Below are positions 19,561 through 56,620 of a DNA stretch of 64,000 nt, piece after piece. Position 1 is the stretch's first letter; every line of letters starts with the position of its first letter. Source of the stretch: Apostichopus japonicus (taxonomy: Eukaryota; Echinodermata; Holothuroidea; Aspidochirotida; Stichopodidae). Both the position numbers and the translations under genes were made by a program. The stretch spans positions 35,498,501 to 35,562,500 of the forward strand of contig NC_092568.1 of NCBI RefSeq assembly GCF_037975245.1, read 5' to 3'. Below the pieces are notes generated by a model. It made no database searches and had not been told where the DNA came from. It saw nothing but the letters and a program-made list of their open reading frames with translations.

Positions 19561-21243
19561 GAGATGTGATACATATGTATAATCAACTTTAGCTATACTA
19601 TCTCGAAGGACGTTATCCAGGTACACTATGGCGTGCAGGAATAGGCCTATTGTGTGTTGTTGCATGGCGGTGTTAATTTTATATTTAACTGTATAGTAAG
19701 CTATAGAGTTCCGATCTTTATGCCGTATGGACAGTTAACTTTTGTTATCACAGGGACCCACCTACACGTTAATTCCAAGGGCCTCTACTTTTATCTCACT
19801 ATTTATATTTATTTGTAATATTTACTTTCGTGTATTTTTTACTGGATTTTTTAATAAACGTAATAATAAACTTAATATACAATTTAAGATTCATCATTTA
19901 TGTTATATTTCCCTCTGTACCATAAAAACTGTTGTCTTACATAAACATATATATACATGGCTGACGAAGACGAAAGAGGGATAAGAGAATGGGCTGGCTG
20001 TAGCCCCGGTTCCCGAGTCTAATAGGGGTCCAGGGTATGGGTAAGGATGGATAAAATACGCCCATTAGTACCATTAGTTTTTGAAAGACTCCAATTTATT
20101 GGGAATTTTCGGAAAATGGCGATATCCATCCGATTAACTTGTGATTGGGTACTCTTGTCTACACCAACTTGATGAATCATCAAAGCCTTTTATGATTTTA
20201 TGAGAAGTTTGCATTGACATATATTTGCTATGACTTAGAGGTCATCAGCCTGAAATGCACCCCTCGCCCCCCCCCCCCCCGTGGCTAAGAGTGTATTGAT
20301 TAGGCAATGTCTCAATGTAGCGAAGTGTTTTGATGCGGTGACAAAACATACTGAAGTTTGGAGAAGAGTGACTATTTTTGTTGACTGTCCAACATTTAAT
20401 TTGGCTAGTTTCATTGATGCCCTTAGATATACATGGATCCTCTTCACTCTTGTGATCCTACTCAAGATTTCGCAATGTATTACGTCATACCGCTATAAAC
20501 CCCCTCCCCTAACCAAACCGGGATGTATATTGGATTCAAAGGTTTCTCATTAAAACAAACTTTCAAAAAACCCAGGATTGACATTTTTTGAAACTTTACA
20601 AGTTCACGTAATCACCTCTAGGATAGAAGATTCCTTCTCTTTTCTGGAAAGTTTCAAATTACAAAAGGGCAGATTTTCTCTTGGGTTATTTCAACCACTG
20701 CACAGAAATCTTTTCACTGGTTTATAGGAAACCTGTCCAGTGACGTAAACTCTATTCAACAATGCAAAGAAGCTTGCCAACATTGGTATGATTACCAAAG
20801 GATTTAGACGTAAATCTTAAAAAGAGATGCTTTCGTTCAAAGGGTTAATTTTCAAAATCGTTCTGTTTCGGTTGTTAACGACAGGATTTCTTTTTTATCA
20901 TTCCAAGACTTGTAAGTAGCACATGTATATTGAGTAAACTGGTAACCATTGTATTACACATGTAATCCAGCTGGTTCTTCCTCTTAAAAAAACCCCCAAA
21001 TCACCTAAGCCTTGGTCAAACATTAAAAGGAGAGCAAAAAAGAGAGAATATTTACTGAGGTTTCACCCCTTCAGGATATTGGTCATTGAGAGAATAGTCC
21101 TACACTCACTCACAAGAAAAGGAGAGAGAGAAAAAGAAGTTTTCTAAGCATAAATCGGGTTAAACATAATAGGTTCGGATCTTGCTTTCTTATATTGGCT
21201 ATTGTTATTTTAGTGATTACGTCTAAGTTGAGATTATACCAAC

Positions 21244-21320
21244 GGTGTGGGCGCAATCGCTAAGGGATAAGCTTACTCCGAAGTTGAAGATTTGGGGGTT
21301 CCCATCACACGAGGGGAAAT
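21244..21320 (+). repeat. Possible tRNA-derived SINE head before a (TA)n tract
   Basis: The segment has a tRNA-like layout: GTGTGGGCGCAATCGCTAAG resembles a degenerate A box and D arm, and TTTGGGGGTTCCCATCACAC resembles a degenerate T arm and B box about 35 nt later, ending in a partly complementary acceptor end. The B box lacks the canonical TTCGA, so it is not a functional tRNA. It is followed directly by the long (TA)n array. Confidence 0.35.
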
Positions 21321-21336
21321 AGTATCCAAATCGACG

Positions 21337-21609
<273 letters not shown>

Positions 21610-24600
21610 ATGAAACAATAATAATAACAGTAACAATAACAACAACCACGACCACAACAGCAACAATAATAGTGTTAACAATTAATGTTGATCATAATAT
21701 AATCTTAATCAATATGATCATTAATAATAAAGTAAAACACATTGGCATGAGTGGAATTTCTTCTCTTCCTGTGATATTGCCTTGAAGTTTTGGGATTTTC
21801 CTACAGTAATTTAGCATTATTCACATATACTATTATCTTCATTTTCTATATTAAACATCCAAGGAATGTGTGTATATATTAATTACCAATCATAATTTCT
21901 GTTCTATAAAGATAAGAATACATTTATTACAGGCAAATTCTGTATATAAACATTAGTGTTTGATTGTTGATATCTGTATCTTTAATTGTTTGTTGTCTTA
22001 CCTTATTTTTAATTTTGAGTTGTATAAATATGATCGAAAAATAACCCAAACAAATGAAGAAGAAAAAAAAAGGAAAAAGCGAGAAAGACAGTAAAATGTT
22101 AAATGCGTCTCTTGTGTAGTTTTAGGTTTAAAAAAGTGCGTGTGTGTATTTACGGGGGAGGGTTGGTTTGGGGGTGAGGTGTAGCTTAGAACTAAATTTG
22201 TTGGACTTCATCCTCTGTATGAATTATTCTTAGAGACTATCAAAGATAACATTTCTGAAGGTTTCGAATTATGTGTGTATTCAATTTTCCGAAATTAACA
22301 CAGATAGCCAAGTTGGTGTAAAGAAAAAAAGGGGGGGGGGGTGGCAGATACACGATGTAAAATCACGACAATTGGAGATCGTGAGTTAGTAATATGTTGT
22401 AAGTAAAATAAAACCACCTTAGAACTTTGAAATTGACTTATAAGAAGCCATGATTGCCCTACTTGTAACTGAAATGATATCATTCATTATAACCACTTGG
22501 TATTTTCTCCATCCTATTATAAACTCAATGGAAGAACAAACCGCGTCCAATTCAACAACTAAAGGGCTTTTGGAAACGAGAAGAAGCTATTCTGTAAAGT
22601 GATTATAACATTGAAGACGTATCTCTTTATAGGGACACTGTGTAAAAGGAACAAAAGGGGTTGATCAGCGGGGCATTTAGGGGTGCTTGTAGGGCAAGAT
22701 TAAACTCCCTGTTGGGCACGAATGGGTTTACAAGAAACTCTCTGGAGTTTGACAACAACGGGTCGATTTAGATAGTAGGCCCTGGTAATTAAGTGCACGG
22801 TATGAATAATTGAGGTGCTTTTGTTATTTTCGAGTGGTAAACAACTTGTAAGACCTTTGTTTGACATGTTCGGCAGGTAAGTGGGCGGTCAATGGTCCAC
22901 GAGAAGGGGCTCAATATCCCAATTTATCCATGGCATAATATATAGAGTGAGAGGTGGAGAGAGAGAGAGTTTGGCCGAAGGGAAAACAAATAATCTAGAT
23001 TTGAACAAGGGAACTTATTATAACGTTTAATACCCGCAATAGGATCATCATGGCCTATTGAATAGGAGAGGAAGAAAAGAAACGGACAGGAAAATGTCAA
23101 AGTTATAGGAGAAGAGTGGACCAAACGCTACAGAAAGAATTATCCGAAACAAGGATTATGGATTGTGATGGAGGGGGGTGTATAGCTGTATAGTTGCGGT
23201 TCAAGTGCGAAGCAGATGTTTGCAATTCGTAATCATACCTTTAGGGAGTATACGGTACCGTGTAGTTGAAATCTCAACCAAGAAAAAAAGAGAAAAAAGG
23301 GGGTTATACTAGATTATAGAACAACTTAGAAACCTTTGGGCTATCATTTAAGAGCATATCTCATCTTGGCTTATCAAAGAATCACGATCGTGACATGCGC
23401 GTTATCATCTGGGAATCTCTCTTCTTCCAATTTTCATCTTTTGGTCTCAGAAATTCAAATGATGCCTGCCAAAATATGAAAAAAAGGGGTCGAAAGGAAC
23501 AATTCACAGGTATAGCCTCTGGAAAAGAATGTCCTAGTTAGAAAAATATCGAAATTTTTGCCTGTTTGACCCAAATACCGTGGATGTTATATTTCCCCTT
23601 TTATACGTGATTTAAGAAATAGGATGATATAACTGATGTACTTTTCAAAAGAGTTCAGTTGTTGAAGTTTAGAAATCCACGCTGTAAGGATAGTCTTAAA
23701 AACTGGCAACAATTTATATAAGATCAGCTTCTCACAGGGCCGAGCCTTTTCTGTTTTCTTCCAGGTACCATCTCTCTCTCTCTCTCTTTGACTTGGTATA
23801 TATGATTTTCACGGCATAATCTACTACCAATATTTTCAGGTAACGTTTAGGCAATGACACAGACAGACAGAAGGACAGACATTACAGACAGATATATAAG
23901 AACGAATCATTTAAATCTGATGCATGGAGAAGAAGAACAATGTGTACATATTTGCGATGCAAACGGCAGCCGGCTCGACGAGTCTCCAATGAGCGATAAG
24001 TGAGTGCGAAGGAATAGGGGATGCCCCCTTTTCTCCTTGTACCAACTTTCATAACTTTGAAAATAATTATCAGCAAACGACATGGAATCCTCAGTTGGAA
24101 TTCATGTTTGGTGTGAATGACTTCCTGTCATATTTACACTCAAAGCCTAACAAGAACTTTTCCAACCTCACCCTATAATTACCCCTCCCCCTCCCCTCCT
24201 CTCCCCTCATTTCCCTCTCCTCTCCCCCTCCCCTACCCCTCCTCTCCCCCTCGCCTCCAGAGCCTCAAGAAAGAAAAATCAGCGCAAATATTTTTTTAAG
24301 AGACACGTAGTCGGTATGACGCTAATGGTACTCGCCTTGTATATATGCCACCGTTTTGATTCAAATGTCGGTTACAGGATGAACATTTGTAGCATTCTTG
24401 GTAGATGGGCCTCAAATTTTTTCAATTCTTTGCTTACATTAACTATCAAGTGGGATATTAGTACATAGCTACAGTCCTCAAGTTACACATAACAGGCATT
24501 TATGTACGAGTAATTTAAGCACGAGAGGAGGCCATGCTGTAGAAAACGTTCGAATAAAAATTCATATCATTTATAAGGTAACATTTTATTTTGTGTCATA

Positions 24601-27090
24601 CTTTCTATTAAGCGATTTTTGTTGTTAACATTTGTGGAAGGATATGGGTTAAAGCAAGTCATTGATTGAATGTAGGGAAGTAGCGAAACATTGCTGTGAG
24701 AACTGTAAAAATATGTACAAAGGAGGTCCGTGCTAGACCATCAGTCAGGGGCCTAACCAGCTTTCCACGAGACAGCAACTAAAATGTTCGATCTCGTTTT
24801 GGACATTTTTATCTGTGACTGGAGAAACGAGTCTCTACTATGCCTTGTTATATGCATTAAATAGGTCATCTAGCTTCATGTATATGCATGATCAGATGTA
24901 TATGTACTACACAAGTACTAAGTGTAGTGCACCTTCTCATATATCGCCGCGTACGACATCAGTTTCACGACATAGATTCGTATATGTTTCAACAAAAAGG
25001 AACCGTAGCGTATCCCCCCGCCAAGTAAAACTATGTAAAGTACACAAATGTGCTCCAAGATACATTTCTTGTTAAATTTCAATATCACCAATCTTGCCAT
25101 CTGTAAGAACAATATGGTAAGTTAAGTATAGAAGAGTGCAACACTATGTCAATAATACAAGTGAATGAGATGATTGCCATGGTGATGGATGCTTTCACAC
25201 GTCTATAAAAGGGCCCTCATAATTGGCCACTTTTGAGCAGATGTGCCACTTCATGATCACCTTTCTTTACTCATCGTGGGTAAGTCTGTGTCGCTTCATT
25301 TACCGAACGACTTATCACACGGCCAACTTATTTCAGGATATTGTCACGAGAAAACCACTTCAGATCTTCACTTCGGTAGCTGTTTAGGGCGTTAATACTC
25401 AGTGTATACACAGATAAGGCGTGTAAGTACTTGGAGTGTTGTTAGTATAAATTACAAGGATTTAAATCTCGAGTGGTGAAAACCTTGTTCTATAATGAGA
25501 TGATCCTTAAAACAAACCTCAATACACACCTGCGTTATACCTGGCGTGAGTCATGGGAGGTCATTTGGACTTGCTCAAGTCATTTCACAGTGCTTTCAAA
25601 GTATTCCTCTACTTTTCCATATCCCAGCACTTTACGTATGTGCGATTAAACGTAGGCCTATATAGCATTCATATACACCGTGGAAATGTTACCATTGACC
25701 AGGGACGCTGTTACAGGTTCGAGATGAGAGAGGGCAGGGAAGGGCGAGGCCACTGATATTGAAATAAGAGTCTGTGGCGGCACAAGGCGCGTGCGGAATC
25801 GCGACTGTGTCAGAAACATTGCGGGTTATGGCTCCTCCCGTCCCGGCCCCCTCCCCTTGCATCGGGAGTCAATTCGACTAGTTTAGCTTCATTGATTTTA
25901 AGCAGCTAGGTTGTGATTCATAAAATAACATAATGCAGACTTAAAGCTGTCAGATCAGGGAGCTGTTGACAACTCTTTGGTCAGATTTACTTTAAAGCTG
26001 ATATCTGAGTTTTATTGTAACTTTTTCGATAATCGGGCTCAGTCATGTAGCCTTATATTCACATATAGGTCGAGTGGGATACTCTAAATTACATCAATTT
26101 AGTGGCTTATTTGTATCTATAAATATCAATAAATATGTCGTCATGCATGTAATTATGTATACTGGTCTATATGTGGTAGAGATAACTGTCATGAACTTTC
26201 CCAGACAGCAATGAAATACTTCATTCCTTTTGAGAGATATCATAGATTGTTATGTTTCTTCACACTCGAGGCTGACGACTTCATCAAGTCTAAATATGAC
26301 ATCATCAACCCACATGGTATGCAATTTCTAATGTTGTTTCTTTATTTATTACAGTGTTCATTTTCTGTAATGGATATGGGTTTAAATGCTGAATCCAAAA
26401 TACTGCCCCCCCCCCCTTAATGGTGATCAATACCATGAACAATCTACTATGAGAATGATCAGAAAGGCGAAGAGAAAGAGAAAATATAAGGTTTCAGATC
26501 CTAGTGGCATTATGACATCACAAATTAAAAAAATACAAGCTCCCAGACATATATAACTAGGATATCTCCCAAATGGAACCAAATATTCCACAGCTGTTTG
26601 AATGAGTTGTTCTTCACAAAGATCTCTGTCATACAAGCCAAAGATGATGTTTGGGCTTGTGTTCCCTTTTAGGTTATACGAGGTTTGTAATAACTCCTAC
26701 GTATAAAATGCATAAAATGATCATGGATCTTGAATCTCCCGACGTAACAAGATAATGACATCTCTGGCAATCCTTTTCTTATTCCTTTAAAAATGTTGTG
26801 GCACACATCAATTTTATCGCCCTTTCGACTTGTCTGACCTGACAACAAAGGTACAAACCGGCGTGAATTTATCTTGACACATGATTGGTGAAAGTATGTA
26901 TAAATCACCAAAGCACAACGCCGTCTCATAGGAACAATAGCGCTGTCGATTATCACTGACTGGCGCTGAAACTTGAAAAATAGTGGGCGGTATTGCATAT
27001 TCTCTGATAGGCTCTGTACTCTGCCAAAGCTGTGGCCTCTGCAATAACAATCAACATTCGGAAAAGGGAAAAAGAAAGAAATATATATAC

Positions 27091-27208
<118 letters not shown>

Positions 27209-28076
27209 TATGTAACGGATCTTATCTGTAACGACTAGTAGTAATTATTGCGAAATATAGTAATCTATAGCAAACACTGACTAGTCTTTGTCTTGCATGT
27301 AGTTGTAATATATTAGTCGCAAAATATCATCACGGTTGAGTGTGCCCCAAATAACACAAGTTCATGAAAATTTGGCTAATTTTACGTTCTTTGGAGTTAC
27401 AGTCAGAAAGAGAGATGGCTCCATTTATTCGTCACCTGACATATCCCATTTCAAAACAATGTCGCTATTTATTTCCAAAATACCACGGGTCGCGAGAAAC
27501 ATGCGTAGGTCACATGGCTGTAAATAGCAAAACTGCCGCTCAAATAAGGGTTGCCCATGATTGATTTATTTATTTAGTTGTCTCATTCTATGTCAAAACT
27601 TGCGAAACAGAATAAATCTGTTCCCAAAGATAAAAAGACGTTCCGATTGGCTCGTAAATGACGTATACACAAATCAATGTCAAGTTAATGGGGCTCACTG
27701 TTGGACAAGTTACAGGTGTGTAGCCTACTACGTAAATTATGATTAATGCATGACGTCAAAAGAAAAAAAAATAAACTTGATGAGTTGGTGACGCAGGGGC
27801 GTATCCGGGATTTTCTAACCAGAGGGGCGCGAATGACTATCTATAAGCGGAGCGCCACCATCGGTGAGGAGTGTGATGCATAGTGGAAGTAGGCGGTAAA
27901 GACAAGAGAGAAACATAGGCGTGGGAACAGGGGGATGGGGTGGGGGATTGCCCTCACTTTCCTTTTTTAGCTAGGGAAGGATTCCACGGCAGTGCTTTAT
28001 CACTCACCTGGATCTTTGAACAATCTCCGGATTTACTGTCCTAAAATTAAATGTGTCACCAAAAAGGATAATTAAT

Positions 28077-30042: not shown

Positions 30043-30101
30043 TTAAGATGCTGACGGACTGTTTGAAAAGCAGAGCTTAAAGATGTACGGCCATCGTCCA
30101 C
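30043..30101 (-). CDS. HNRNPL: hnRNP L coding exon 16 (C-terminus and stop)
   Basis: Encodes SGRWPYIFKLCFSNSPSAS and TAA. This matches the conserved hnRNP L ending, where the last strand of RRM4 is followed by a few residues. Acceptor GTTTTTGCAG|G. The exon continues as 3' UTR toward lower coordinates. Confidence 0.93.
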
Positions 30102-33100
30102 CTGCAAAAACAGAAATAAAACAGAGACGTATTAGATGATCCTTGCCAATCACTCTCCTGCATACAGTTTTAACATCTCGATGACATGTTTAGTCACAAA
30201 TGGATATACTGGTCCAGAAAAAGTTCAATAAAAAATATAACTCAGAAGTAGGTTTGGCTTTCTGGTTTATAATATAACCTTGCACCTTGAGAAAACATTT
30301 CAATGCAGGAATGAATGGTCCAATGAACAATATTTTTAAACAACCATTTTGATGAGTGAATGGGGAGGGGGGACTGTAGCATCTCTCTTGGGCTGCAGGA
30401 GAAATGTGCATTTTCTTTACCAGAACACTTGTACCAAGACCTTCACAGATTGTATCTAAGTTTTCGTTTTTGTTTGTAAGACTCAGAAGGTTTGAAATAA
30501 GTTAGATATATACTTCTTATAAGTGGTACTGGATGGAATATGCCACAACCGACTTCTGTTCTTTTTAACATGGATGGATGGATGTTTTTCTACATTGACT
30601 TTCTCAATATGGATGGATGCTCAAAGAAGGCATGTACAACAAACAGAATTGAATAAAACCTATTAGGAATACTTCATTCTATGAATTTTGAAGTTTTCTT
30701 GAAGTTTACATATCTGTGGCAATGAAAATGTTGTTACAATCTTCTATTAGACCTACTAAAGGCAGCAAACGCTTACCACATGGCAAGCAATGTATGAATT
30801 ATCAGTGTTAATAACGCATCCTTTCTTTGCGGCTTGTGTAGCAATAACACTTGTTTTTTATCTTAATCGACCCTAATGATCTACAATCTAATATGCACAT
30901 TACCATGAAAAGTTATCAAAGAGATGGTTTAAGCATCGGCGGCGATTATTTCACCAGTTCATATCACCCTTTTTATTTATATGTATATATATTTATAAAT
31001 ATATATCTATATATAAATATATATAGTGTATTTAATGAATCTGAGAGACTATCCAGATTGTGGTTATTTAGAGGGGGGGGGGGGGTTGGGGGGTGGGGAC
31101 AAGACTACATTGACATCAATGACTCACTGACTGAACATTCTACAGACTTTAAAAATATCTCTAACCTGTCAAGGTCAAACCTGAAATATATGAGCATAAC
31201 CAGATCTCTCCCCTTTGATAAGTGCCTGCCCTCTTCCAGGAACATTTTGAGAATGGAACGGGTGCCCCATAGGTAGAACTAAACATTTGTTCTTAGAGAT
31301 TTGTAAATCTGACACAGCATATTTAATCTTTTTGTTTCAATCACACATTCCGCAAACCCCAAAGATGTCAAATATACAAGTCTTTGCCTTTCATCCGCCG
31401 TCTAGCTATTGTTTCTTTGAAGAAACCAACACTTCTTTAAGGTTAAATATTTTGTTTGTTTATCAAGATGACATCCCGATTAATTCATTCTCTGATAATT
31501 TTGATAAATGATGATATAAATACCATACAGGAGACACAAACCCAACTTTAATCATTAGATTTACATGATAACAATCATTGGTCATGAACAACAACTCCTC
31601 AAACAGCTAAGAATAATCTTGCTCAGTTTGGCAGATATATCCTACTTTGATATTCATCCCTGGGAGCTATCCTTTTATGCATCTGTAATGTTTAAGTGCC
31701 ACACCATGTTCTTGAATAATTTCACTTTTTGTATTTGATTTTCTTTTCATATTTTCGGTAGAATATTTAGCAGTTGTAAAACTGAAGCCAGCAAGCCAAT
31801 CCCATCATTAGGTTATGGCAAGAGGTTCAACATTTTAGATTCAACAATTGCAAAACCCCTTCTCAATTAACAGGAAAAAAAAAACTGAATTTATAATGCA
31901 AGAAAAAAACACACACTAGATTTAGCACATTTGGCTTGATAATGTCATATTTAGACTTGCTCAAGTCTTCAGCCATGTGTGCAAAGACACATTAAACCAG
32001 TGATATCTCCCAAATGGAACAAGCTGTTGTTGGAGGTTTCATGATGACAGTCATTGCTATCACGTAGACCTACGATGACGGATGGGTTTACACCACCTTT
32101 TATAATATTTCTTGTAACGATAAAATAAGTTGGAAATTACTAGATTTACTTGGGTTTTCCATGGTAGTGTGGTTGGCAAGGACAAGGCCCTCTATGGCTC
32201 TGGATCGATCGGTCCATTCCACCAACCCCGTCAAGCTCTGGGCGTCCACTGAAGGGAACAATGAAGAAAGCTAACAGTAAGGTTAACTGTTCATATCAAC
32301 AAAAACGATGACAATTCTGGAAAGGGTTTCATATATTTATGAAGGCATATAAAAAGCTTGTGACAGTTTGGGTATACATTGTGGTGGAATGGACACATTT
32401 AAGCGATAAATTCCAATTGGTTTGTAATTTTTTTTTCTCTCAAGATTTTACACCCTTGTATGGACCTGGAGAGGTAAGATGTTATTTTTTTGTGACGATT
32501 CCAAATTCTAACATGAGACTAGAAATAGGATTTCAAATATATTAAATGAATTGTAACATGATCTTGGGTAAATCACCTCACTAAAATTAACATGAACTCT
32601 GGCTCCTTCTTGATACAGATACAGATCTTAGGCACGGCCTCCAAGGTCAATTATGAAACAAAGAATGGCCATAAATCTGTTCCTGTGACTTACTTTTGGA
32701 TTCAAATAGCTTCACTGCAGACGGCTCCTCGGCTCCAGCGTTTACGAAAAGCTGTCATGGAAGGATGAAGGAAAAAAAATATGCAAAGAGTGGCTTTGAA
32801 GCAGTAAGATTTCATTATTTAAGCTGCAAAAAGCAGATTCTACTTTTCACCAGGCTCACTCACAGTTGAGTAGCGCATTGCTCTGCTACACCAGTACATT
32901 TGTTATGGAAATGTTTTAGGTGAAAGCTAAAGACTTCTACTTGTTTTAAAAGAGTAATTAAATTTTTAAGAGTACAAACTTTGATCCTTATAAGAAAATT
33001 ATTAGGAGCACAAAAGACGTTAACATGTTAAACGATGATCATAAGATTGACTCTATTCAACTGAGATGTTTTTCTGCCAATGCAGCATTGTCTGTGATCT

Positions 33101-36100
33101 TTGCCGTTAGTCCTATACCAACACACCAACTAATTGAAAGGTAAATCATTCAAAATTTGCCTGTGTTTTCTAGCTTTAATGGAATGGAAACGTGGTAAGA
33201 TAGATGTGTCAATGAGGAGCCTTCCAGTGGATCAGCTACATACAAAACCATACAAGTTCAACGGTAATTTGTAGAACTAAGGCATGCTCTTAGGTACTTT
33301 TGTTTTAGCCAAAATGAGCTCAAACTAGTGAGTAAAATATGACTGTGTTCAATGCTAGCAATTTTGATGCCAGGACAGTTTTCTGTGAGTCAGAGCACTG
33401 CCATACCGATGGGAAGGGAGCTCTACTGAACTTTTCGTTCTAGGCAAAGGTGTGAACTGTGAACTGATTTAAATTGTACAAAACATGACGATATATGGGC
33501 CTGTAGGGACAACAAAGCCACAATTAGTTTGTTAGTCATGAAACAGACACTAGTGGGGGAGGGAACCAAAAACAGAAACTAGTGAGCTTGGGTACCAAAA
33601 CAAACCAGTGCTCATTCAAAACTGTCCAGTATTCACTAGGTGTGTGCCTGTATTTGGGAAGAAACATCTCTTATAGGAAGTGAACAAAAGGTACTTTGCT
33701 GGTGTGGTGCAGCAAATGGGAACCATGATTTGGATTCATGTTTCTTTCGCCTATATTAATATCCCAGTAATCTTGAATATAATTTTGACTTCCAAATGGC
33801 ATCATTTCATAAGCTTTATCATTGGGCCTTCAATTGTTACCTTTTCTTCCTTTGGGTTTATAAGATTTCATTCTGTGGTTATTATTACCTACCCCCTTCC
33901 CTTAATCTTCTCTTTGTCCCTCCACTGTTTATCTATTACCTCTCCTCTTCCCCTGTTGGTTTCTTTCTTTCTTCTCTCCATCCCTTGTCTACTAATCCCC
34001 TTACATCTATCTCTTTGTGTTCACCATGCTCATTAACCTGTCTGTATTCTGTTTTTTTGTCCCTTCTGTTACTGTTACTTGTCATTTAGCCTTTGAAGAA
34101 GATCCTGCTAGGATCTAAGGCCAGGCCAACTTACTTTTACATGTTATTATTACCTGTTTGATGGTCTCCTCCGTGCTCTCGGGATGACAGTTGTAAAAAT
34201 GAAGCACTGTACCAGGTCGCTGGATTCGTGCGAAAAGTTAAGGACAGAACTACAAGAATACATTTCATAAATTTCTTCATACGAGGTTACAATGGACTAC
34301 AAGGTGCTCTATAACAGCTAAATAGTAACTCTCTTTTAATCAAACACAGCAGACCGTTTTATTATCGACTGTTTTGGGTTTGAAATTAAATGAAATATTC
34401 TGATAACCACTGCATCTAAAAATTGGTCAAACTCCCAGTTTTATTCACCAAAAAGAAGGTTCCTGGGCAAGTAATTAATGATTCCATTCGATTCTCAATA
34501 TTTTGTTCTGACTAGTCATATTTAATAGACTAAATTGACTGTGAGATTTCAATAACTGAAATGCAATCGCAAAATTGATCAAATTCCAACTCAAAACGCT
34601 TGTTTGCTAATTATATGCAAATTAGATCAACCATAATTAATTATGTGCAAAAGTGTAATAGCATCATTGTAAAAGTGTTTGTTAAAACTGAAGAGATATT
34701 TATTTTGGAAAGATCAAATCTTTCAGACAAACTGAATTGATTTTTTTGGTTAAGTTCTTAACTATCTATTGCAAAACTAATTACACACTATTGTGTACTC
34801 AGAGTATTTGCTAAGTGTAGACTTTAGTTTTGCAAACACTGCCACCTTTATTTAACTTCTACTTTGAGGACAATTGTATATTTATGTTGCTCGGACCGAG
34901 CCATGCAATATATTTACGCATAATTTGAAATCCCTCAATCTAACTGACAGGTCTTTGCAGATAAAGTCATTTGGCTGCAGCTAATTAGAAAGTTATACAC
35001 CGTTTACTGCAATGCACACATCCCACATTAAATGTAATGTTTTATTTTTCCACTGGAAAATATTTGCAAGTTTTCTGGCAATTAAATTATCCCGGATGTG
35101 ATTTTGTTGTATTAATGAATCAGTTGTTGTTTTCAGGCATTTAACCTCCTTTTAACAGTTGACTCCATTACCACAAGATTGTGACAAATTTGACACAAAC
35201 TACAGATTCTAAGCCTACAAGATCCATCTCTGTGATGGCGGCAAAGGATATGATTTTTGGCTGCTGCTTGTTCTGTCATGAATCTGTTGTTTCGGTTTTT
35301 GCTATAGTCCTTAAAGGCTGCGCTACCATCAGGGAGTTCCCCTGCCATAGGGGGAGATGCCAGGTATGTTTGAATGGAGAACCTGGCAGATAAAAAATAG
35401 AAAATAAAACAATAGAAATACAACTTGTGGAAACAATATTGGTGACTTACGCTATTTGTTCTTGTACTATTTACTCTCATTTATGGGGTCACAGATATGG
35501 AGGTAATCAGTGGATTAGGGAGGGGTGGGGAAGAAAGATTGGAAGGGGGTAGGATAACACTGACAACATTTATTGTTATACTAAAACTTGCCTGTTATCT
35601 AACTAATTACTGCAACTTGATATTCACACATATATTCACTGAACAACTATGATCAAACAGCTTAAACTTGTTAAGAAAATCAAACAGTTTAAAGCTACTT
35701 TCACAAACTGTTTCAATATAAATTGCATTTTAAATATGCATTTAAAGCTGGTTTCACATGGTGTGAAAAAATTAAAAATTGAATTGTATGGTTTGCCAAC
35801 CTATGAAGTTACCAACTGGCAAGGTAGGACCTATCACCTCGCAAGTCACATAAGGTTAGGTCACGTACAAAAAAAAAAACCATCAAAAATTGTACAAACG
35901 AGCAGACAAAGTTACATACTATACACAACATGAACATGCTACAGTTTAAGGGCCTTTGAACGATAAATCATGGCCCACTTCCAATAAAATATTGGTCACT
36001 TTTGTATCCAACCTTAAACCACTCAACACGAGTTACTACATACAGCTTATGCAATTGGAGTCATTATCAAAGTGGTTAAAATTAGAAACAGTGTAGTCAA

Positions 36101-39100
36101 ATATGTCCTCCTTATGACAAATTTAGCATCTATGCACATTGGGCTATTTTTGAATTTTATTTGGTAATAATTCTAAAACCCAGGGGGGAAATAAAGGTAT
36201 GCAAGTGTTAGGCCCTAACAGACTATTTCTTTCCCCATGAGTATGGTATGTTTCAAATATTAACACTGCCACGAATCGTCCAGGCTGTAGTATGTATATG
36301 ACTGTATGCATGGGTAGTAGTAATACTATCTTCACTTGTGCACCTGCATCCATGTTTGCACAACTCTCACAAAGATTCACTAAGTCAACAATTTCACAAA
36401 CTAATGTATACACATCAATTAGAAAGTAACTACCATCAAGCCATGGACATTTATAACAGTTTGACATGGGACTTTTATCTCAGAATTGTGAAAAGTCTGA
36501 TATTGAAAATTGGAATGTATTTAGATCTCCTCATATGCACCCAAATAAGGCCTACTCCTCCACCCATTTCCTTCACATCCTCTGACAATACCATCTGAAT
36601 TATCATCACCTATCACCAATATCATAACCCAAACACCGACAACGCTCTTCAGTATAAGTTTGCCACTTACGCAAGTTGGACAGTCTTGTCGAAGAACTGG
36701 ATGTTACTGAGGTTAGAGATCGCTCTGCCAACCATGTGAGGGTCACCCATCTCCACCATAGCACACCCTGGTTTGCTCTTCATGAACTTGATCTGCAGAA
36801 TAACGGAATACTCCCAAGGTTAGTACTTTTCGATAAATCTTTTCCCCCGTTTCCAGGGCGGGACCAATTCCTGTGAAGAACACAGCCTAGTCTGCTGGAG
36901 AAACTAGGGGCCACTTAATTGTAACCAGGGGCCATTTAGTAATTTTTAATTTATCATTTAAACTCCTTATAATAATTATTAAACTATCAATGTGGCTTCA
37001 AGGTTTCATGCATGATTTTGTCAAGAGTGGCTATTTGTCTTGGGAGCTAGCCTCGGTCCACATTTAATTTTTTTGGGAGGTGGGGGGGGGGGGGAGTAGT
37101 GGAGTTAATGTCACGTTAACCTCAATCACTACAAAATGTGTGGGGGGGGGAATGGAGTTAAGGTCACGTAAACCTCAATCACTACAAAATGTGATCTTAA
37201 ATCATTAACAGCAACTATCGAGAGTTCACCCGTGTATTTGTAAAGGTTGTGACCTAATTCACACATCCTGTAACATAACAGTAACATGTACTTACACAAC
37301 CGTCGAAATAACAGTCACATTTAAAACCCGCAGCAACATTTAAAAACCCAATTTAAACAATAAACATTTTAAGCCTGCTATAAAGAATTCATTTATAGCT
37401 GTGTTTTGCCTTGGTTAATGACTTTCTTCACTGTAAAATACCCTTAAATTAAACAACGACCATTTGACTTCTCCCTACTAGCATGATATTCAAATAATAA
37501 TATGCTATGTCAATAAGTTTAATGTTACAAAGTTTCATTTACATGTCATGTACCTTTAATGTCTTTGCCTATGTAAGTTAATCATCTATGTGACACTGGT
37601 TCACCCTGAAATTATTTTTTCAGCTATCTTAACATGCTACCTCATTGGGCATAGTAAGACCACATTCAATGCAATAACTTCTCAACCTGAAATTCAATCT
37701 CATTTAGACGATCAATGTTTCAACTTATTTTATTTCAACACACGCTGTGGAAAATTCAATTCATGCGAATATTAAAATCCATCTCAATCCATTTCCAACC
37801 TATTTTGGCCAATTGTTCAACATATTTATTCAATGGAAAACCTTCATGGCTATACTGTATTCACAACCATCTGTAACCTGGGTACAACTCACTTACAAAT
37901 GTTTTATTTACATAGAGCAGCTGAACAGAACCAACCGCATGACACCATATGATCAGTAAGCTGTTATTAATGATACTTAGAGATCAAATTTGCACTGGGC
38001 AGCTGGTTAACCTGAAAAAGCATTTTTATGTCAATAGTGAATTGCGCTAGTATAATAAATTGCACCACAATATGTAACACCTTTCCACAGGCACAAAATA
38101 CTATATCCAATCAAAGATTGGATGTTTGGGAACTGACATGTCACAATCCACCAATGATTAGCTTAAATTCTTAAGCCTTGAAAGGGCCTGGATTAGAAAA
38201 ATTATGACAGGTTGATGAAAATGTTGTTATAGGTGGTAGTACATTTTTTATTTTGAGTTTAATCACGTGTGACAACTACTTTTGTAGCAAAATTTGCTTA
38301 GTTACGCAGGCAACTTCATAAAAACGGAGAGAAGATGCTAAGCTAAATTTAAAAGACTTCTGCTTTCCAACTACTGTGCTTGGTCAAAACTATCTTTCCT
38401 ATGTCCAAAGATATTACTGTGAAAAACAGATATTCTTCGAGCTTAAGGATAGAAAGGATTAATTTATAGGGTCCTCTTTCTCTGGGAAGTACTTGAAAAC
38501 TTGGATGATGATTATTCAGTGTTTTTTATCAGCTCCTTGTTTGAAACTATATTTATAGATGTTGTCCACCTGCCTGTCTTACCTTCTGCACTTTTAATTT
38601 TGCACTAAGCTAAGTTTGTAGATTCCTAGCGCTACTCAACCGAAACGAAAGATTTAAATACTTTACCTTCCAGACGTTGCCATAGAGACAGAGGAGATTA
38701 AAGAGTCGGTCGCAGTTCATCTTGTCGGGGTCCATCCCGTACACCATCACAACATGACTGCCGTTCCCGACTTGGTTGGGCATGTTTTGAGGAGTCGGCT
38801 GTAGACCGTACTGGTCGTGGCCACCACCGCCATACTGTTCGTAGTCGTCGTATTTATTATGCATGCCGCCATGGCCCGCGTATCCTCCACGACCGCGTCC
38901 ACGACCTCCCGGCCCTCCACGGAATCCTTGTTGCTGGTAGCCATGGTCTTGATAATTGGGTGGGAATTGTCCCCTTGGACCTCCTGTGTACCAAGATAAG
39001 CAATGAAGTAAACAAGAACTGCCCGTTCATTGGCACTTACTGAACAGCTATAGCTACATATAAAGTCATTTCTTTGCATTCAAGTAGTGAGATTTTGAAA

Positions 39101-42100
39101 GCCATCAGACATGTTTACAGCCACCCTCCAGGTAAATTAAATTGCTCAGACTGCCATTCCAGTTTTCTCAAAATGATGATACCCAAAGAATTTGAGAAAG
39201 TCTTCACTGAGCACAGACAAGTTTTTTGACAACTGCAAGAGTCCTCTCGGAAGGAAAAATGTGGTATAAGATAACAAGATTTGAATCACCTGTTCCTGCC
39301 CAGGTACTATACTCTATTACTGTAAATGACTTGGAGGAGTTCTTGACCAGCTAAACTAAATCATAACTAAATCATCTTTAAACTTTCTAACATAATTTGA
39401 ATCTTTTGGTAACCTTCACAACATTTTACTCCATGACGTATACATTCACTACCATATGCTCTAGTGATCACACACTGAACTGTGTGACCAAACACACTGA
39501 ACTGTGTGACCAAACACACTGAACTCTGTGATCACACACACTGAACTGTGTGATCACACACACACTTAAACTGTGTGATCACACACACTGAACATCAGTC
39601 TCCAGCAAGTCTCAAGTAGAGACTTGTCCTGACATTGATCTAAACACTTACCACCAAACCTTGGAGGTGGTGGACCCCTCCTGACGGTGGGTCCATTATG
39701 GAGGGGTGGCTCTGGGGGGTCATCGAGCAGAGCAGGTCCTCTTCCTCCACGGGCTGTTGGGTAAATTATGAGATAACAAAAGTTAAGAGAACGGAAGTAC
39801 AACAGAGGAAGTCGATCATGGCCCGATTCATACGACAAATCTTCAAAGGTATTTTTCAAATCAATCGAAGATGAGTATCTATGCAAATGTGTGGATGCCT
39901 CTAAGTACAAATTTAGTACAGCAATGAAGCCAACAAATTCATATAATTTGTGCTACTTGTTTAATCTCATCTGTCTTTGTAATGTCTGATTGTTACGATT
40001 GATTGATTGAAAACAACTTGAAAGTATTAGTAACAAAGGGGCAAATGTATATCACTCCAAGAATTATTTCACAATTAACTTCCTATGTATACCATCTTAA
40101 AGTGAGATAATCCTGCATTAATATAAAATCAAACTGCATGGGGCAACTGGAAGAGAAATCTACAACAGTACTAAAGTGGAAAACATCTTTCAAAACACTA
40201 CATGAAGAGAGACGAATGAGTGAGAGCAAAAGAGAGCATTAAAAAAATGCAGCAAATACTGACATATTTTAATCAGCATATTTAAGTGATTTGAGGTTTA
40301 AATTTGACAAATCATTCCCTCCATAAAATAATGTCAATTATTGTAATCAAAGAGGCGCATAATTATGACTACTGGTGACACCATCTGTCATAAACATTAA
40401 ATTCATAAAAAAAACATGAGAAAAATTGAGACCGCATGACTCCTCCAAACTCAAGAGGGTTGACAATGAAAGCCATGAACCAAGGGGAAGGAAACTTACA
40501 ACTTTTCTTAGCTTTACTCTAATGGAAGGTCAAACCTCCACTGCAATTGCATAAGAAATTGAATAAGAACGAACATAAGAGATAGTCAAACAAGGATTCA
40601 ATGCTACGCAACTTTCTAAACTGTGTCAGGAAAGTAGGACAGCCTGAGAAGGAACCTCATAGTTTCATATCGGAAATTTGTGGTGCTGTGCCTCAGACTT
40701 TATGAAAGGAAATTGCAATGAATGATAAACATATCGTTATCAAATGTAACATGCTTTGTAGAGGGAAAAAAAGTATCATGAGATATTAAAAAACACATAG
40801 CTGTAAAAAGGTGGAACAAAAAAACAAGAAAGAAAAGAGTCTTTTTCCCTTTTTTTTCTTTTTTTGTAAAGATGGAAGGAACAAGTGGTAGAGAGTAGAA
40901 TGTTGTATCAAGACAAAAGAAGAGACAGTTACATGTTAAGTCATTGTAAAGCAAGTTGATGAGTCTATTAGGTTTTTTTAAGGTAACAGTGACAGAGAAT
41001 TGTAACAAATTATACATTGATAACGTTTATTAAAGTAAGACTTTGTACAATGATGATTGAGTTTACATGTATATAATATATGTATATATATGTCCAATTT
41101 GATCATTTTGAGAAAGGGAATAATTTAGTGTTCTTATTTTGTGAAGCAACTTTCTCAGAACATGATGAAAACACTACGAGTAATGTGTACAACAACTGCT
41201 ATACATGTTTGCAGGGATGTGCTCACATTGGGCGGCACCTGGCGGCTGCGCCCAGCAGTATTTTAACCATTTGCGCCCGGCACTTTTTTTGATGATAATT
41301 TAACAAATTTTTCCATAACCAAAATCTGGGAGAATACATGGCACAGATTACCAAAAATAGCACAACCTATGCATACTTCATGTGCAAAATTTGTCCAGTG
41401 GGGAGGGGGTAACCCACCCATGAGACCCCTCTCCCAGGGTGTGGATCACACTACCGCACAATCTGCCCAGCACTCAAATATTCCTGAGCACATCCCTGTG
41501 TTTGGTTCTTTGTATGGCAGTTGTTTATTTTACATAGCATTTTGCTATGCTAGTATCAGATCTAGACTCTACCCTGTAATATGACAAATAATCACTGCCC
41601 TAGTGTTTGTAAAATCATTAACGTGATAAACTGTACATTGATGATGGTAAGAGTTTCAAGTTCCAAATATCACACAGAGAGCTTACAGTATAGATATAAC
41701 AAATATGTATTATGCGTTTTGTTCAAAGTCAAAATTATTTCTTTTCCTTATTCCTTATCCGATACAGAGATCGAAAGTGTAAAAGCAATTGCCAAGTGTG
41801 GACTACCCTATAGTTCATCATACAATGGACTTCTTGGAAACCCAAATGAAACATTTACAATACTCACTGAGTAACATGGTTAATGAAATCATTCTTTTTG
41901 AGTTACAACCAAATCAATGCATGCAAGGTTAATTAATGTAAATTATTGTACAGTAATTAATGATTAATGTAAGTGTTACGTAATACATGTAGAGTAGAAA
42001 TCATCAAATATGAAATGATACAATGTTTACTCAACTCACTAATGTATGGTAGTACCATTTTGGGATCTTAATGATGCTCTTTCAATAAGTCCTCTTTAAT

Positions 42101-45100
42101 ATAGATCTGGTAAATTCAAGCATCCTTTGCCCTACCATACCCCAATAAAAGAACAAAATAACTGTTTGCCCCCTATCCCCTACTAATGTTTGTAACTTTG
42201 TATACTTGGTCAAAGCACTTCTGCTAGAACCAACAATAGCACATGCTCAGAATTGTGCCTTGAAATCTGCTCCCCTTCCCCCACCCCCCAAAAATATATA
42301 TAATAATGAGGGTAAGGGGAAGCTTTTTCCCACAGTTTTACCCTCGCTGCTCATAGCAACGAATGGACATCTTTGCTTTGTAACTTTGTTCCATATGAAG
42401 TTACTACTTCACTTATAACAAAGAATTCTACAAGCTAAAGCTACTGTATGGGAATGTATGTAGGAATAACACCTTTAGAAAGACATGGAGATTTGCAAGA
42501 GCTTATGAAACTCATTTAAAAGTAAACATTCATTGAGCATTGTTGCTGTGATCTGAATTCAATGTCTGAACAATAAAGTATTTGCTATAAACGTATGTCA
42601 ACTTGTGTCAAAGATCCTTTTATTCTGTGTGGTTTTAATTGCCAGTAACACAAATGCACATAGTACATTGCTTTACAGACGCCATGTCTCTTACTACGTT
42701 ACAAAGCGAACAGCGAAAAATGAAAGTGACGCAAAAGTGAAACGAGATAAGTTTGGTCTTTCCTCTTACCTTGAATAAACCCAACACAAAGATAAATATA
42801 CCACAATTGGTTGCACCAAGTCAATAATTGCCTCTTCTTGGGTGACCAATGGACAGAGACGATATACGGTATCCTCTCTCTCTACGCTGCCCATGGCATC
42901 AGTCCAGCAGCACCCTGTAGATTCAGCAGCCTCCGGTAGCCTGTGCATGATATGTCAGCAGCAGATAACATTTAATTTTTTTCGACCTTTCATCCTGGAT
43001 GTGAGTCTGTGTGTCCGTCTGTTCATGTGTGACCGTCTAGAGATGCTTGTTCACGAGTTTCGTGTACCCTGTTACCTTCTTGATAATGCATGTCGGTCAC
43101 TGTTCTTATGGGATGGCTCCGTTCATAAAAGTGGTTATGTTGCATGGTCGTGTGTACACTGGTGGGTATATCTCTCAGCAGTTAAATTCTCCACTAAGAA
43201 AGCAGTTATAATGTTTAAGTGGAGGAGGTACAAAATGAGGTTATCTTGAGTGGTAAGGGTGCTTCGTCTGTGCTTCAAATGGACGTCCGGAGAGGAGTTG
43301 ATATGTGTCCCATGTTCCGGTGGAATGGCAAATTCAAATCTGTCAGTGCCCGGTTAACGGTTATATTCTGTTGATTTTCCTTGAGACAGGCTGTTTGCCT
43401 GAGGGGCAGTGATGACTGTTTGCATTGTGACATGTGACGTCGCCCAAGTTTAGGTAGGTTACTTATATGAGATATGCTAAATTGTTAACTCAAGTACAGA
43501 AACAGGGAATAATTTACTGTGCAAATTTTGTGTAGCAAGTTTTAAATCTCTGACATATTTCTCTCACTAAATTATATATATAGTTCCTTTGTAGGAAACT
43601 GCTATACATCTTCTTCACCTGTATAGCACCTTGACAATTTTGCGACACGATGCTGGATAAATTATTCCCTGCAGTATGCACGTTAAGATACTGAGTTATA
43701 TAACTATCATTAGAGTTGTTCCTAACAAACTGGTGTACCTACTGCAATGTATCTACCACAAGGTATTAGTCTCTAATAACCATGTATGATTCAGAACCAT
43801 ACTATCCCTGTACTCTATTATTCAATGTTCTTGAAATAAAGTAACTTCTATCTAGATTTATCTACACAGGGTAGGATTTTTTCTTTGCAGTAGATAAGCA
43901 CTCTGTTAACAGTGACCCATTGTAAATACCCCTTAACAGAGCTGAATGAGAACTACCCAGCTGTTGTACTGTTGGCTACCATGCAGTATTTATGTACTGG
44001 AACATACAGTACTGTGTATGGACACAATTGTCTCCTGACATACCATTCAAATTGTTCTCAGAAAGTAATCATAACAGACAGTGAATTGTACTGTGGTAGA
44101 AAGATGTCAAATACTGCACATACCTCAAAATTGTACAAATTGTTCTTGTTGATCTGATCGATCGGTTATGTTTGTGATGGTATACCACATTACTTCCTAT
44201 TTTAAGGGGTACACTGTGAGATTTTTTATTGGGGGGGTGATGGGGAGGGCAGGGGGGGAATGTCATAACCTACTTTAATCTAAACCTAAAGCATGATAGG
44301 TCAACCACGACTAGAGGTCGTGCAGCATGTACATCTTTGTCAGTACTACGCTTCATACTGTGAGGGCAGCAAACATACAAATGTGTTTTTTTTTTTTCTT
44401 TCAGAGAAATATAAATATAAGATAATCTACACATATATGAAAAGAGAATTGGTTTACTAAATGAAATAAAACATGATATTTTGTGATAGTTACACATATC
44501 ATATTTTCTAATGTAACCGATTGAATACCAATAAAACGTCTGACATAATTACTTGCTGTTCGATGTCCAAAGTAAAAAAAAATGTATGTACTCTTACACA
44601 TTTCGTTGTTAACACCTTTCGTGTATTATATAATATTTCATGTAACATCTGAGTACAGAGAAAGATATGGCAGTATCATGAGTTAGCAGTGATAGAAAGA
44701 GAATATACTGTAGTAGAGATTCTGTTCACCAATATCAGCTTTACATCAAATTCAGATTGCATTGTAACAAACTACTCCCAAATATGTAAAATTGTAAACT
44801 GGAGTCATGTAAAATCAGTTTGAAGGTCAATGAAATACATCAGAAATTAAAAAAAGTTGTCCAGCCAATACTAACTGATTAGAAACAAAAAGTCTACCCC
44901 AGGAATTCAAGGAATTATTCAACCGTTCTGTATTGTAATGTGTAGTATGTCCTCACAAGGCAATTCACCTATATCACCAGGTAACACCTCACACTAAGAA
45001 ACTGAAAGGGAGAGTCAATGAACAAACATGCCTTGTTTGTACTACTACAGACTTTTGTGAGTATAATGGAGAGAGGTTATCTCCATGGTGAATAAACACT

Positions 45101-48100
45101 CTATACACCCCCTGCTTTCCTCAATATTCCATTTTGCGTGATGTCAGAAAAGGAGAGTCATTGGATGAGGGTGGGGGGGGGGTGGGTTGGGGTTGTACAA
45201 GGCACTAGAGAATGAAATCAAGACTGGAACATCCTCAGTCGAAAGCCACCAGGAATGTCATCAGGACTGGGCAGGTGGGTTATTGTCAAAGTGTAATGCC
45301 AAACATGGATTCAAGGCAGAACTACAGTACCATACAGTAACACTCTACACACATCTTCGCAATTTAACCAACAGAGGAAAAAGTGGCTGTACTCTCTCGT
45401 TCTGGTCACTACACAGTAAGCCACATTGACTTTGTGAAGTTTTTAACAAAATGTATCATATTGGTATGTAGGTCTAACAGCAATGATTTGTCCCCATGAA
45501 AGGATGTAAATATACATGACGATGAACAAAGAGTGACTGATTAAATTTTCACAACGATGCTTTTTGTTTGTTACAGGCAGAAACTCAAAAAAATATGTAA
45601 ACTGTAAATGAAACGACTAGATGGAAAAATTTAATGTGTATGAAGAAACCAGAGTTAAAGTATTCATTAATAATACAGGTCTTAAAAGGAATAATGTGAA
45701 GCCCAAAACATGCTTTTTGACAGTACAGTAGTTGCATCACGTTCAAGTGTGTCAACTGTAAAACAGGGAGAAAGTGGCGTGTGCAAAGTTTCAACAAATG
45801 CTGTAAAAAGGTAAAAATCCGTTTCTTGTCTTTTTAATAAACCAGTGAGTATGAAATTTAGCACTGAGATGCATGTTAATAGTTGTGCAAGAAATGTGAG
45901 TAAAAACATCCTGTAGAGAATACAGAGTTCCCTGTCCTTAATGTTTCTACTAGTTTATGGCCAAAAAAAATGTTTTTTTATTTATAAATGTGGTGATGAT
46001 CAGTATAACATTGAACTCTGACATCAATTTATTGAGTAGAAACAGATTTATCAAGTACATACAATTTTATTTTGCACACAAAGGCATGGAAACAATTTTC
46101 AAGACAAAGTTTTACCAATGTCTGAAAGTAATGAGATATTCTAAGCATTTAAGTAACACACCTCTTAAAAAAAAATTATAAAAAAAAAACACTTTTATCT
46201 GGCAAGAATTAATACAAAGCCACAGAGAATGAGCTTCACATACTAAGTTATCATACATCATAACATCAAATTCGTTCAGGAACTATGTATGGTTTTATAT
46301 TTATGGTTTTATACATCACTGTCCAGCCAAACTGCCTACTGTCACCAGCAATTTTTTTTATGCAGCCAATAGACAGGACTCTCAAAACATATCTTTGCCT
46401 TAGACAAACCATAAGTTTTGTCTGCATTGGTTTACAAAGTAACAACCATGGATGTTCAAATTCAAGCAGCCGGCTAACTAAAACCATTGACCTTGGTCTG
46501 CCAAATCTTCCTGTGGATGCTCACATTCAAACAACCCACTGATTTCAACATACCCACTAAAATGAATTTCCTAAAAATACTTACAAAATTACAAAACTTA
46601 CCTGTTTGTACTGCAGGGGTAGTGAAGTCATATGTTTCAGAGTCATTCTTATGGACTGTCAGAGTTTTGGGCTAAAACCGAAAAAAAAAGTAAAAAAATA
46701 TTGCATAAAGTGAACACTGCATGTTATGTAGGATGCATTATGAATACATTTTGATCAGCATTTTTGAATACTCAGATTGTGTATACATGTATAGAACCGT
46801 TGCAATTCTTTGTGAGTGTGTACACTATATAGCAACATGTCTATAATGCATAGGATTTTATATCCCAGGCATAACATCACCTTGTACTATGAAGAAATAC
46901 TAATACATCCTGCTTCTAAGGATGATTCTCATATGCACCAGAAACGGAACCTGGTACAGGAAACGTGATACCTCTCAGACAAACATGTAGTGTAACAGAC
47001 ACTAGTCACACCCTTCATTAATAGTGACATATGATAGGCTCTAACAACCCTCAACTATGCCAGTAAGAATCACACAAGAGACAATTCACACTAGTTATTT
47101 CAAGGCAGTTTAAATGGAATATATTACATTATACTAGATCAGAATTTTGTGGGTTAGTGTACCTGTATAGGTTAGGAAGATATTCTATTCAAGTGAAATA
47201 AGAGAAGAAAAAAACAAGAGAAAAACAGGAATGCCTCATTTCATTATGTACAATCTAATTGATCATTCTTGAATACAAGATCACAATATACACTGCATTT
47301 ACTTTAGTTTCTGTACTGTAAGAGAATTAAGGCTGATAGCACAAAAGCAGGGAATGATTTATTATCATGTATCGCCTCGCAAAATGCTACATGCCGAATG
47401 GGGAAATTGCTTCGTACAAGTGTAAAGATGCATCGCAGTTTGTGTTGTTTTTATTACCTAGGAACCATATGTATTTTATAAGAGACACAATTTCACAGCC
47501 TTCAAATCAGATATGTAAAAATTTGAATGCTAAATGATTCCTTGATAAGTCAACAACATCATCCAACTATTAAAAACTACACTCCTTTCTTTTGCCAAGG
47601 TATTCATAACTTTATTTCTACAGGTGCACTTTGTACTTTAAAAGGGGGAGTGGGCTATTATAAAACACTTGAACTTCTTAGCAAACCTCTCAAACCGTAC
47701 TCCTACACTTCCACCCTTATGACATCAAAGAAAAAGTAAACAATTCCATTGATTTTTGTCAGTTTTGATGAGTCTAGTACTCTGTAAGCCACAGATACTT
47801 ATTAAGTTATCAGAATATCAAAAAGTGCCACATCATCAAACTTGCCAGAAGGCAGCTGGTTGCATTTAATTTACAAACACAAAGTTAACTGAAGTATCCT
47901 GCAGCAAGGGAAATAAGCTTGAACTCTCCTATTTTTGCTTAGCACTTGGTTATTATGTAATGTCCGCATGAAACATACCTGTTGACTTGTGTTTATGCAT
48001 GTGTGTGTAAAATGCTACACTGCAAAAGAGGTATGTACTTAGTGTAGCAAATGAACCAAAGGTTGTAGAATCTTTCTATGGTTTGAGCGACAAATTTCCA

Positions 48101-56079: not shown

Positions 56080-56620
56080 TCATCGCTCCAAATAGGGAGG
56101 ATGAGATATTGTAGTTCCTTGCCAGTTGGGCCATATACGGCTATGTCAGTTGCCATAGCAACAGTTGCCATGGTAATGGTTAATTTTCCTGAGTAGCTAC
56201 CGTACTCTCCGGGGTCACCCATGGTGGGGTACTCCATGTTGACCAGAAGTCCATGACCGACGGAGGGGTAAAAACTTGTCTGGGTGTGTGTGTCTGTGTG
56301 TGTGTGCGTGTAACGGTGTGGTGTGTCAGCCAGTGTATATGTGTGTCTCCAATTTAGTGTCAAAAACTCCTCCTTAACGGCTGGGCCGATTTTCTTCAAA
56401 CTTGGTGGGATCGAAGGTACCCGAGGGTGAATCCTTGTGTCTCGCAGGCCTCCTGAAGCAAAGGTTAGAGATCAAAGGTCAAATTTAGTGATATAACTCC
56501 ATGGGAACCTTCACATGGATTATGGCAATGTCAAATACTATCAAACTATTTTATTGCCATGGGAATCGAGGTCAACGGTCAAGTGATTAAAGGTCAAATG
56601 CATATTTAACATCGGTACCC
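56080..56620. other. Likely dispersed repeat (CTGGGCCGATTTTCTTCAAA block), class unknown
   Basis: Includes GT-rich microsatellite DNA (56281-56350) and then GGCTGGGCCGATTTTCTTCA and repeated GGTCAAAGGTCAA-type phrases. This wording resembles repeats I associate with invertebrate genomes, but no ends or target duplication are visible. Confidence 0.25.

What the first reader, a model, noticed from the sequence alone, without database searches (positions are those of the whole stretch)
34228..35251. Second AT-AC U12-type intron in the same gene, just before RRM4
Starts ATATCCTTTG, has a perfect TCCTTAAC branch site 10 nt from the exon and ends in AC; joins AAKN to RIQ as the family requires. Two AT-AC introns among 15 in one gene is far above chance and suggests ancient paired retention, possibly reflecting the internal RRM duplication history.
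Basis: partly seen in the sequence, partly recalled or inferred. Interest (0 to 1): 0.78.

Follow-up and report, generated by a model that had tools for sequence, protein, structure and literature searches.

The report
Minor-spliceosome AT-AC intron in hnRNP L
A splicing-factor gene (hnRNP L) in an unnamed eukaryotic genome carries two rare AT-AC introns of the kind removed by the minor splicing machinery, whose RNA parts this genome also encodes; both look genuine, but the arrangement is of a known kind and is not explained by duplication inside the gene.

Summary
Window 35251..34228 (minus strand) is a 1,024-nt intron of an hnRNP L gene: it starts ATATCCTTTG, has TCCTTAAC 9 nt before the exon, ends AC, is phase 1 and joins AAKN to RIQ, as in solved hnRNP L. 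My model has 16 exons and one open 554-residue frame; 2 of 15 introns are AT-AC (the other: 49703..48777, phase 2). Such signals at a fixed junction arise by chance about 4e-8. The genome also encodes U11, U12, U4atac and U6atac, and no in-frame GT-AG pair with a fair donor lies within 75 nt. RRM duplication is not supported: the introns lie in beta3 of RRM2 and before RRM4, with different phases, and the PTB paralogue here has neither. Human HNRPLL already has a published U12-type intron. A new member of a known kind, of modest interest; splicing and conservation were not observed.

The parts
34228..35251 (-). Intron 12 (the finding): AT-AC U12-type intron, 1024 nt, phase 1, AAKN|RIQ
35242..35251 (-). 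U12-type 5' splice site ATATCCTTTG of intron 12; 6-nt runs of pairing with the genome's own U11 and U6atac
34237..34244 (-). Branch-site sequence TCCTTAAC of intron 12
34228..34236 (-). 3' end of intron 12, TTTTCGCAC; AC is the first AC after the branch site
48777..49703 (-). Intron 6: the other AT-AC U12-type intron, 927 nt, phase 2, AMV|E in beta3 of RRM2; 5'ss ATATCCTTTT, branch TTCTTTAAC (48796..48788), end TATCAC
35252..35382 (-). Exon 12, upstream neighbour (ends AAAKN + C)
34154..34227 (-). Exon 13, downstream neighbour (GA + IQRPGTVLHFYN..., start of RRM4)
30043..53260 (-). Coding part of the hnRNP L/LL-family gene: 16 exons, 15 introns (2 AT-AC, 13 GT-AG), 554 residues plus stop
49641..49690 (-). 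CA-rich stretch 13-63 nt inside intron 6 (10 ACAC/CACA in 50 nt), the densest 50-nt window of the 15 introns; candidate hnRNP L site
   Evidence: post hoc

Best explanation
Window 35251..34228 is a functional minor-spliceosome (U12-type, AT-AC) intron of the one hnRNP L gene detected in this genome. It is removed by U11/U12 recognition of ATATCCTTT and TCCTTAAC, followed by U4atac/U6atac-dependent catalysis. It is one of two such introns in this gene. The pair most likely reflects independent survival of two minor introns in an old, intron-rich gene, an instance of the known clustering of U12 introns in certain genes, and not duplication of an intron-bearing RRM. If either intron is retained, the reading frame soon hits a stop (codon 210 or 498), so productive hnRNP L expression should depend on the minor spliceosome. 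Shown: sequence signals, frame, family, the four snRNAs, non-homologous positions, absence in the PTB paralogue. Inferred: actual splicing, age, independent survival, dependence of expression. The confidence below is for the U12-type identity.
For: Signals and frame. Chance estimate. Protein family: TIGR01649 at 401.8 bits (cut-off 287.4); junction residues AAKNRIQ in solved hnRNP L. snRNAs, one full-length match over the cut-off each: U12 115.9 bits, U6atac 104.2, U11 88.7, U4atac 72.2; 0 of 14 control genomes matched in each of the four searches. Pairing runs (G-U allowed) with the genome's own U11/U6atac: 8/7 nt for intron 6 and 6/6 for intron 12, against 2-5/2-6 for the 13 GT-AG donors. 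No in-frame GT-AG alternative within 75 nt with donor match >=6/9 at either junction. Retention stops. Positions on the RRMs. PTB paralogue. Clustering and phase bias in print. One locus: all 14 protein matches reported lie in this gene (only the best candidates are scored there, and that search did not reach the PTB paralogue).
Against: A duplex-energy test of the U12 branch region against intron 3' ends did not discriminate: intron 12 -8.0 and intron 6 -6.0 against -3.7 to -9.6 kcal/mol for the other 13. Intron 8's donor (GTAAGTTTTG) gave a U6atac run as long as intron 12's (6 nt). Intron 6's branch site has one mismatch to the consensus (TTCTTTAAC). No orthologous genome could be searched, so conservation is not shown. 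The exon model rests on homology, splice sites and frame.
Confidence: 0.95

Rival explanations
1. The paired AT-AC introns are traces of an internal RRM duplication that copied a U12 intron.
For: Two AT-AC introns in a four-RRM gene. GT-AG introns 1 and 4 also lie in the linkers before RRM1 and RRM2, so introns before an RRM recur in this gene.
Against: The two AT-AC introns have different phases (2 and 1) and non-equivalent places: beta3 of RRM2, and the linker before beta1 of RRM4. No other RRM has an intron at either aligned place, though the hand-cut RRM1 and RRM3 rows are gapped at intron 12's column. Introns 1 and 4 sit about 12-14 residues before beta1 with phases 0 and 2, intron 12 about 6-7 residues before it with phase 1 (read). 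The PTB paralogue lacks both AT-AC introns. The closest pair inside two RRMs is GT-AG introns 5 and 13, columns 29 and 30, phase 0.
Confidence: 0.02
2. The intron is removed by the major spliceosome, either as an AT-AC U2-type intron or through nearby GT-AG sites (a twintron as published for human HNRPLL).
For: A U12/U2 twintron is published for human HNRPLL.
Against: No in-frame GT-AG pair with donor match >=6/9 within 75 nt of either junction (weaker donors and wider stretches not scanned). Donor and branch site are of U12 type, unlike any of the 13 GT-AG introns.
Confidence: 0.03
3. hnRNP L feeds back on its own minor intron: the CA-rich stretch 13-63 nt inside AT-AC intron 6 binds hnRNP L and alters U11/U12 recognition, so excess hnRNP L causes retention and an early stop. 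(This adds to the best explanation and does not exclude it.)
For: It is the densest 50-nt ACAC/CACA window of the 15 introns. hnRNP L binds CA-rich intronic RNA (passage of PMC7547044) and promotes inclusion of a stop-bearing exon in intron 6 of its own mRNA in mammals (passage of PMC7764535). Retention gives a stop at codon 210.
Against: Found post hoc. A denser cluster lies outside the coding part of the gene (22 hits, minus strand 56333). Introns 7, 8 and 9 hold windows of 8, 8 and 7, and intron 9 is denser overall (2.4 against 1.73 per 100 nt). Intron 12 has no such cluster (maximum 3). No conservation test.
Confidence: 0.06

Closest known systems
Human HNRPLL (HNRNPLL) U12-type intron / twintron (PMC3564746)
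   Same: Same gene family; U12-type intron in a vertebrate hnRNP L-like gene, with slight variation in an RRM between the variants.
   Different: Human case is a twintron with an alternative U2-type intron (537 vs 536 aa); no such pair found here within 75 nt. Which intron position it is could not be checked; supplements were not available.
Genes with two U12-type introns, e.g. most mammalian SCN and CACN1 channel alpha-subunit genes (PMC2831892 passage)
   Same: Two U12-type introns in one gene.
   Different: Those are large duplicated gene families; here one RNA-binding-protein gene was detected.
PTB/hephaestus-like paralogue of the same genome (matches in C2:5117990-5162921)
   Same: Same TIGR01649 family; 7 of the 10 family matches lie there, each an exon piece below the whole-family cut-off.
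   Different: RRM2 beta3 and the pre-RRM4 segment are uninterrupted; the introns read beside them have GT donors and AG acceptors.

Membership tests
U12-type (minor spliceosome) intron | 5' splice site RTATCCTTT (recalled consensus) | tested here: met
   9/9, against 2-6/9 in the 13 GT-AG introns of the gene
U12-type (minor spliceosome) intron | Branch site near TTCCTTAAC a short distance from the 3' end (recalled consensus) | tested here: met
   GTCCTTAAC 8/9, 9 nt before the exon
U12-type (minor spliceosome) intron | AT-AC or GT-AG termini that keep the reading frame | tested here: met
   AT...AC, phase 1, open frame through 554 residues
U12-type (minor spliceosome) intron | Genome encodes U11, U12, U4atac and U6atac | tested here: met
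   4 of 4 found over the Rfam cut-off
U12-type (minor spliceosome) intron | Removal depends on U12/U6atac in cells | not testable with these tools
   needs RNA and depletion data
hnRNP L / PTB family gene | Four-RRM protein matching hnRNP-L_PTB above the curated cut-off | tested here: met
   TIGR01649 401.8 bits, cut-off 287.4; solved hnRNP L RRM1, RRM2 and RRM3-4 chains match in order; Pfam RRM families
HNRPLL-like twintron | Alternative U2-type GT-AG pair at the same place | tested here: not met
   0 in-frame pairs within 75 nt at donor match >=6/9
Intron pair made by RRM duplication | Same phase and equivalent place in two RRMs | tested here: not met

The most novel reading that the evidence does not exclude
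Two minor introns act as a double gate on hnRNP L, and hnRNP L itself controls one of them through a CA-rich element just inside the U12-type donor of intron 6. That would couple the level of a splicing regulator to minor-spliceosome activity.
Probability: 0.06. Interest if true: 0.6.

Novelty: new member of a known kind. Interest (0 to 1): 0.25.

Why it matters
It documents a pair of AT-AC introns in an hnRNP L gene, together with the genome's own set of the four minor-spliceosome snRNAs. It separates a real clustering signal from an attractive but unsupported duplication story. It gives exact junctions for testing whether hnRNP L output depends on the minor spliceosome in this organism; in human, HNRPLL is already known to hold a U12-type intron.

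Tried and rejected
RRM-duplication origin: rejected on the intron map and the PTB paralogue. Twintron: no alternative in-frame pair found; wider stretches and weaker donors not scanned. Duplex energy of the U12 branch region: not discriminating. Viral-contig search for relatives: 1 stretch matched a pattern, 0 confirmed. Retrocopies that would show the spliced junction: none among the 14 protein matches reported, all in this gene (a diverged copy could be missed, as that search did not reach PTB). Family search for PTB: 10 matches, 7 in C2 and 3 in this gene, none over the whole-family cut-off because exons match one by one; one of its 14 control genomes (Synechococcus elongatus) also rang below the cut-off. 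Rfam scan of the window: 0 matches. Other genes in the window: a listing of 235 stop-to-stop frames of >=60 aa (224 after a complexity filter, 40 printed) showed none that I recognised by eye; apart from hnRNP L frames and exon strings they were not searched against family libraries. Literature: searches. Of the hnRNP L/LL-directed ones (12, 13, 18, 22, 34) I saw listings (20 of 104 papers, 20 of 22, all in the other three) and opened, for hnRNP L/LL, PMC3564746 and PMC8329584; the only U12 statement on this gene family that I met is the HNRPLL twintron. Papers listed but not opened may say more. PMC2846911 and PMC6717393 held none of the hnRNP terms looked for; PMC6865273 none either.

Full report
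What is there. The minus strand from 53260 to 30043 encodes an hnRNP L-family protein in 16 exons. I assembled these by homology, splice sites and frame; the joined frame has 554 residues and a stop. It matches NCBIfam TIGR01649 (hnRNP-L/PTB) over nearly its whole length at 401.8 bits against a cut-off of 287.4. The closest solved chains are hnRNP L, E = 2.7e-63. All 14 protein matches reported in the whole genome (671,581,487 bases, 35 contigs; window at C8:35498501-35562500) fall in this one gene. That search scores only the best candidates and did not reach the PTB paralogue, so a diverged copy could be missed.

The finding. Intron 12, 35251..34228, starts ATATCCTTTG and ends TCCTTAACTTTTCGCAC. 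It splits codon 459 after its first base and yields AAAKN|RIQ. The solved hnRNP L chains shown read AAKNRIQ there. Intron 6, 49703..48777, is the other AT-AC intron (ATATCCTTTT...TTCTTTAACCCCTGTATCAC, phase 2). The remaining 13 introns are GT-AG. Donor scores separate cleanly: 9/9 for the two, 2-6/9 for the 13; branch scores are 8/9 against 4-7/9.

Chance. With an order-2 Markov model of the gene's own introns, the joint rate of such a donor and such a branch/acceptor at one junction, +-3 nt, is 3.6e-8. Over the whole minus strand a perfect RTATCCTTT occurs three times against 1.1 expected in 60 simulations, and branch-type sites 13 times against 10.2. So the evidence is the position at two homology-fixed junctions, not the raw counts.

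The machinery. All four are present, with one match each, full length and above Rfam's cut-offs: U12 (C17, 115.9 bits), U6atac (C21, 104.2), U11 (C14, 88.7), U4atac (C14, 72.2). None of 14 control genomes matched in each search; the tool describes its collection as prokaryote, so I take these controls to show specificity only. The genome's U11 and U6atac 5' regions pair with the two donors in runs of 8/7 (intron 6) and 6/6 nt (intron 12). The 13 GT-AG donors reach 2-5 for U11 and 2-6 for U6atac, so the U6atac test alone overlaps at 6 (intron 8). A simple duplex-energy test of the U12 branch region did not discriminate.

Nearby alternatives. Within 75 nt of either junction no in-frame GT-AG pair with donor match of at least 6/9 exists. 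Human HNRPLL has a U12/U2 twintron giving 537 and 536 residues (PMC3564746, parts 1-2 read; repeated in a passage of PMC8329584). That paper shows that a U12-type intron in this gene family is already in print. Its position could not be checked, as supplements were not available.

Is the pair surprising? At a minor fraction of 0.5%, two or more among 15 has probability 0.0025, and at least one more given one is 0.068. [quoted passage not shown] Phases 1 and 2 agree with the bias of minor introns away from phase 0 (PMC10639083 passages). The same survey finds minor introns in general less conserved than major ones (section 26) and favours neutral explanations (abstract). This speaks against assuming special ancient retention.

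The duplication story. In an alignment of the four RRMs (hand-cut pieces), intron 6 lies in beta3 of RRM2 and intron 12 before beta1 of RRM4, with different phases, and no other RRM has an intron at either aligned place. At intron 12's column the RRM1 and RRM3 rows are gapped, so I also compared linkers. Introns 1 and 4, both GT-AG, lie about 12-14 residues before beta1 of RRM1 and RRM2 with phases 0 and 2, while intron 12 lies about 6-7 residues before beta1 of RRM4 with phase 1. The PTB paralogue on C2 has RRM2 beta3 whole in one exon...TRN, intron of phase 1, then (N)QFQALIQLNDANSAAVAKL. It also carries [23 protein letters not shown] whole in another exon. So neither AT-AC intron is shared with PTB in this genome. 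Whether they were gained in hnRNP L or lost in PTB is open. One oddity points the other way: the GT-AG introns 5 and 13 fall one alignment column apart in helix alpha1 of RRM2 and RRM4, both phase 0. If any introns recall the duplication, it is those.

Mechanism. Removal by the minor spliceosome is inferred from signals plus machinery, not observed. Retention of intron 6 or 12 would give a stop at codon 210 or 498, so failure of either would truncate the product. A post hoc lead is the CA-rich stretch 13-63 nt inside intron 6, the densest 50-nt window of the 15 introns, although intron 9 is denser overall and a denser cluster lies upstream of the coding part at 56333. hnRNP L binds CA-rich RNA (passage) and in mammals promotes inclusion of a stop-bearing exon in intron 6 of its own mRNA (passage). 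I give this a low probability.

Limits. No RNA data were available.

Noticed in passing
49690..49641 (minus): CA-rich cluster (10 ACAC/CACA in 50 nt) just downstream of the U12-type donor of intron 6, in a gene whose product family binds CA-rich RNA.
   Followed up: partly
introns 5 (50367..49790) and 13 (34153..32752): Two GT-AG phase-0 introns fall one alignment column apart in helix alpha1 of RRM2 and RRM4; possible relic of RRM duplication or coincidence.
   Followed up: partly
intron 9, about 39552..39503: Repeated short units (CACACAGTTCAGTGTGTGTGATCACA...) that look like a small tandem, near-palindromic array.
   Followed up: no
61098..61442 (minus): Open frame with an imperfect repeated unit (...MARGGLKPQFHI...), perhaps a minisatellite.
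   Followed up: no
27080..27210 and 21223..21674: Long TA/AT-type simple repeats.
   Followed up: no
G000:C2:5117990-5162921 (L019, L020, L022-L024, L026, L028-L034): PTB/hephaestus-like paralogue whose matched exons span about 45 kb; in RRM2 the two donors and two acceptors read are GT and AG.
   Followed up: partly
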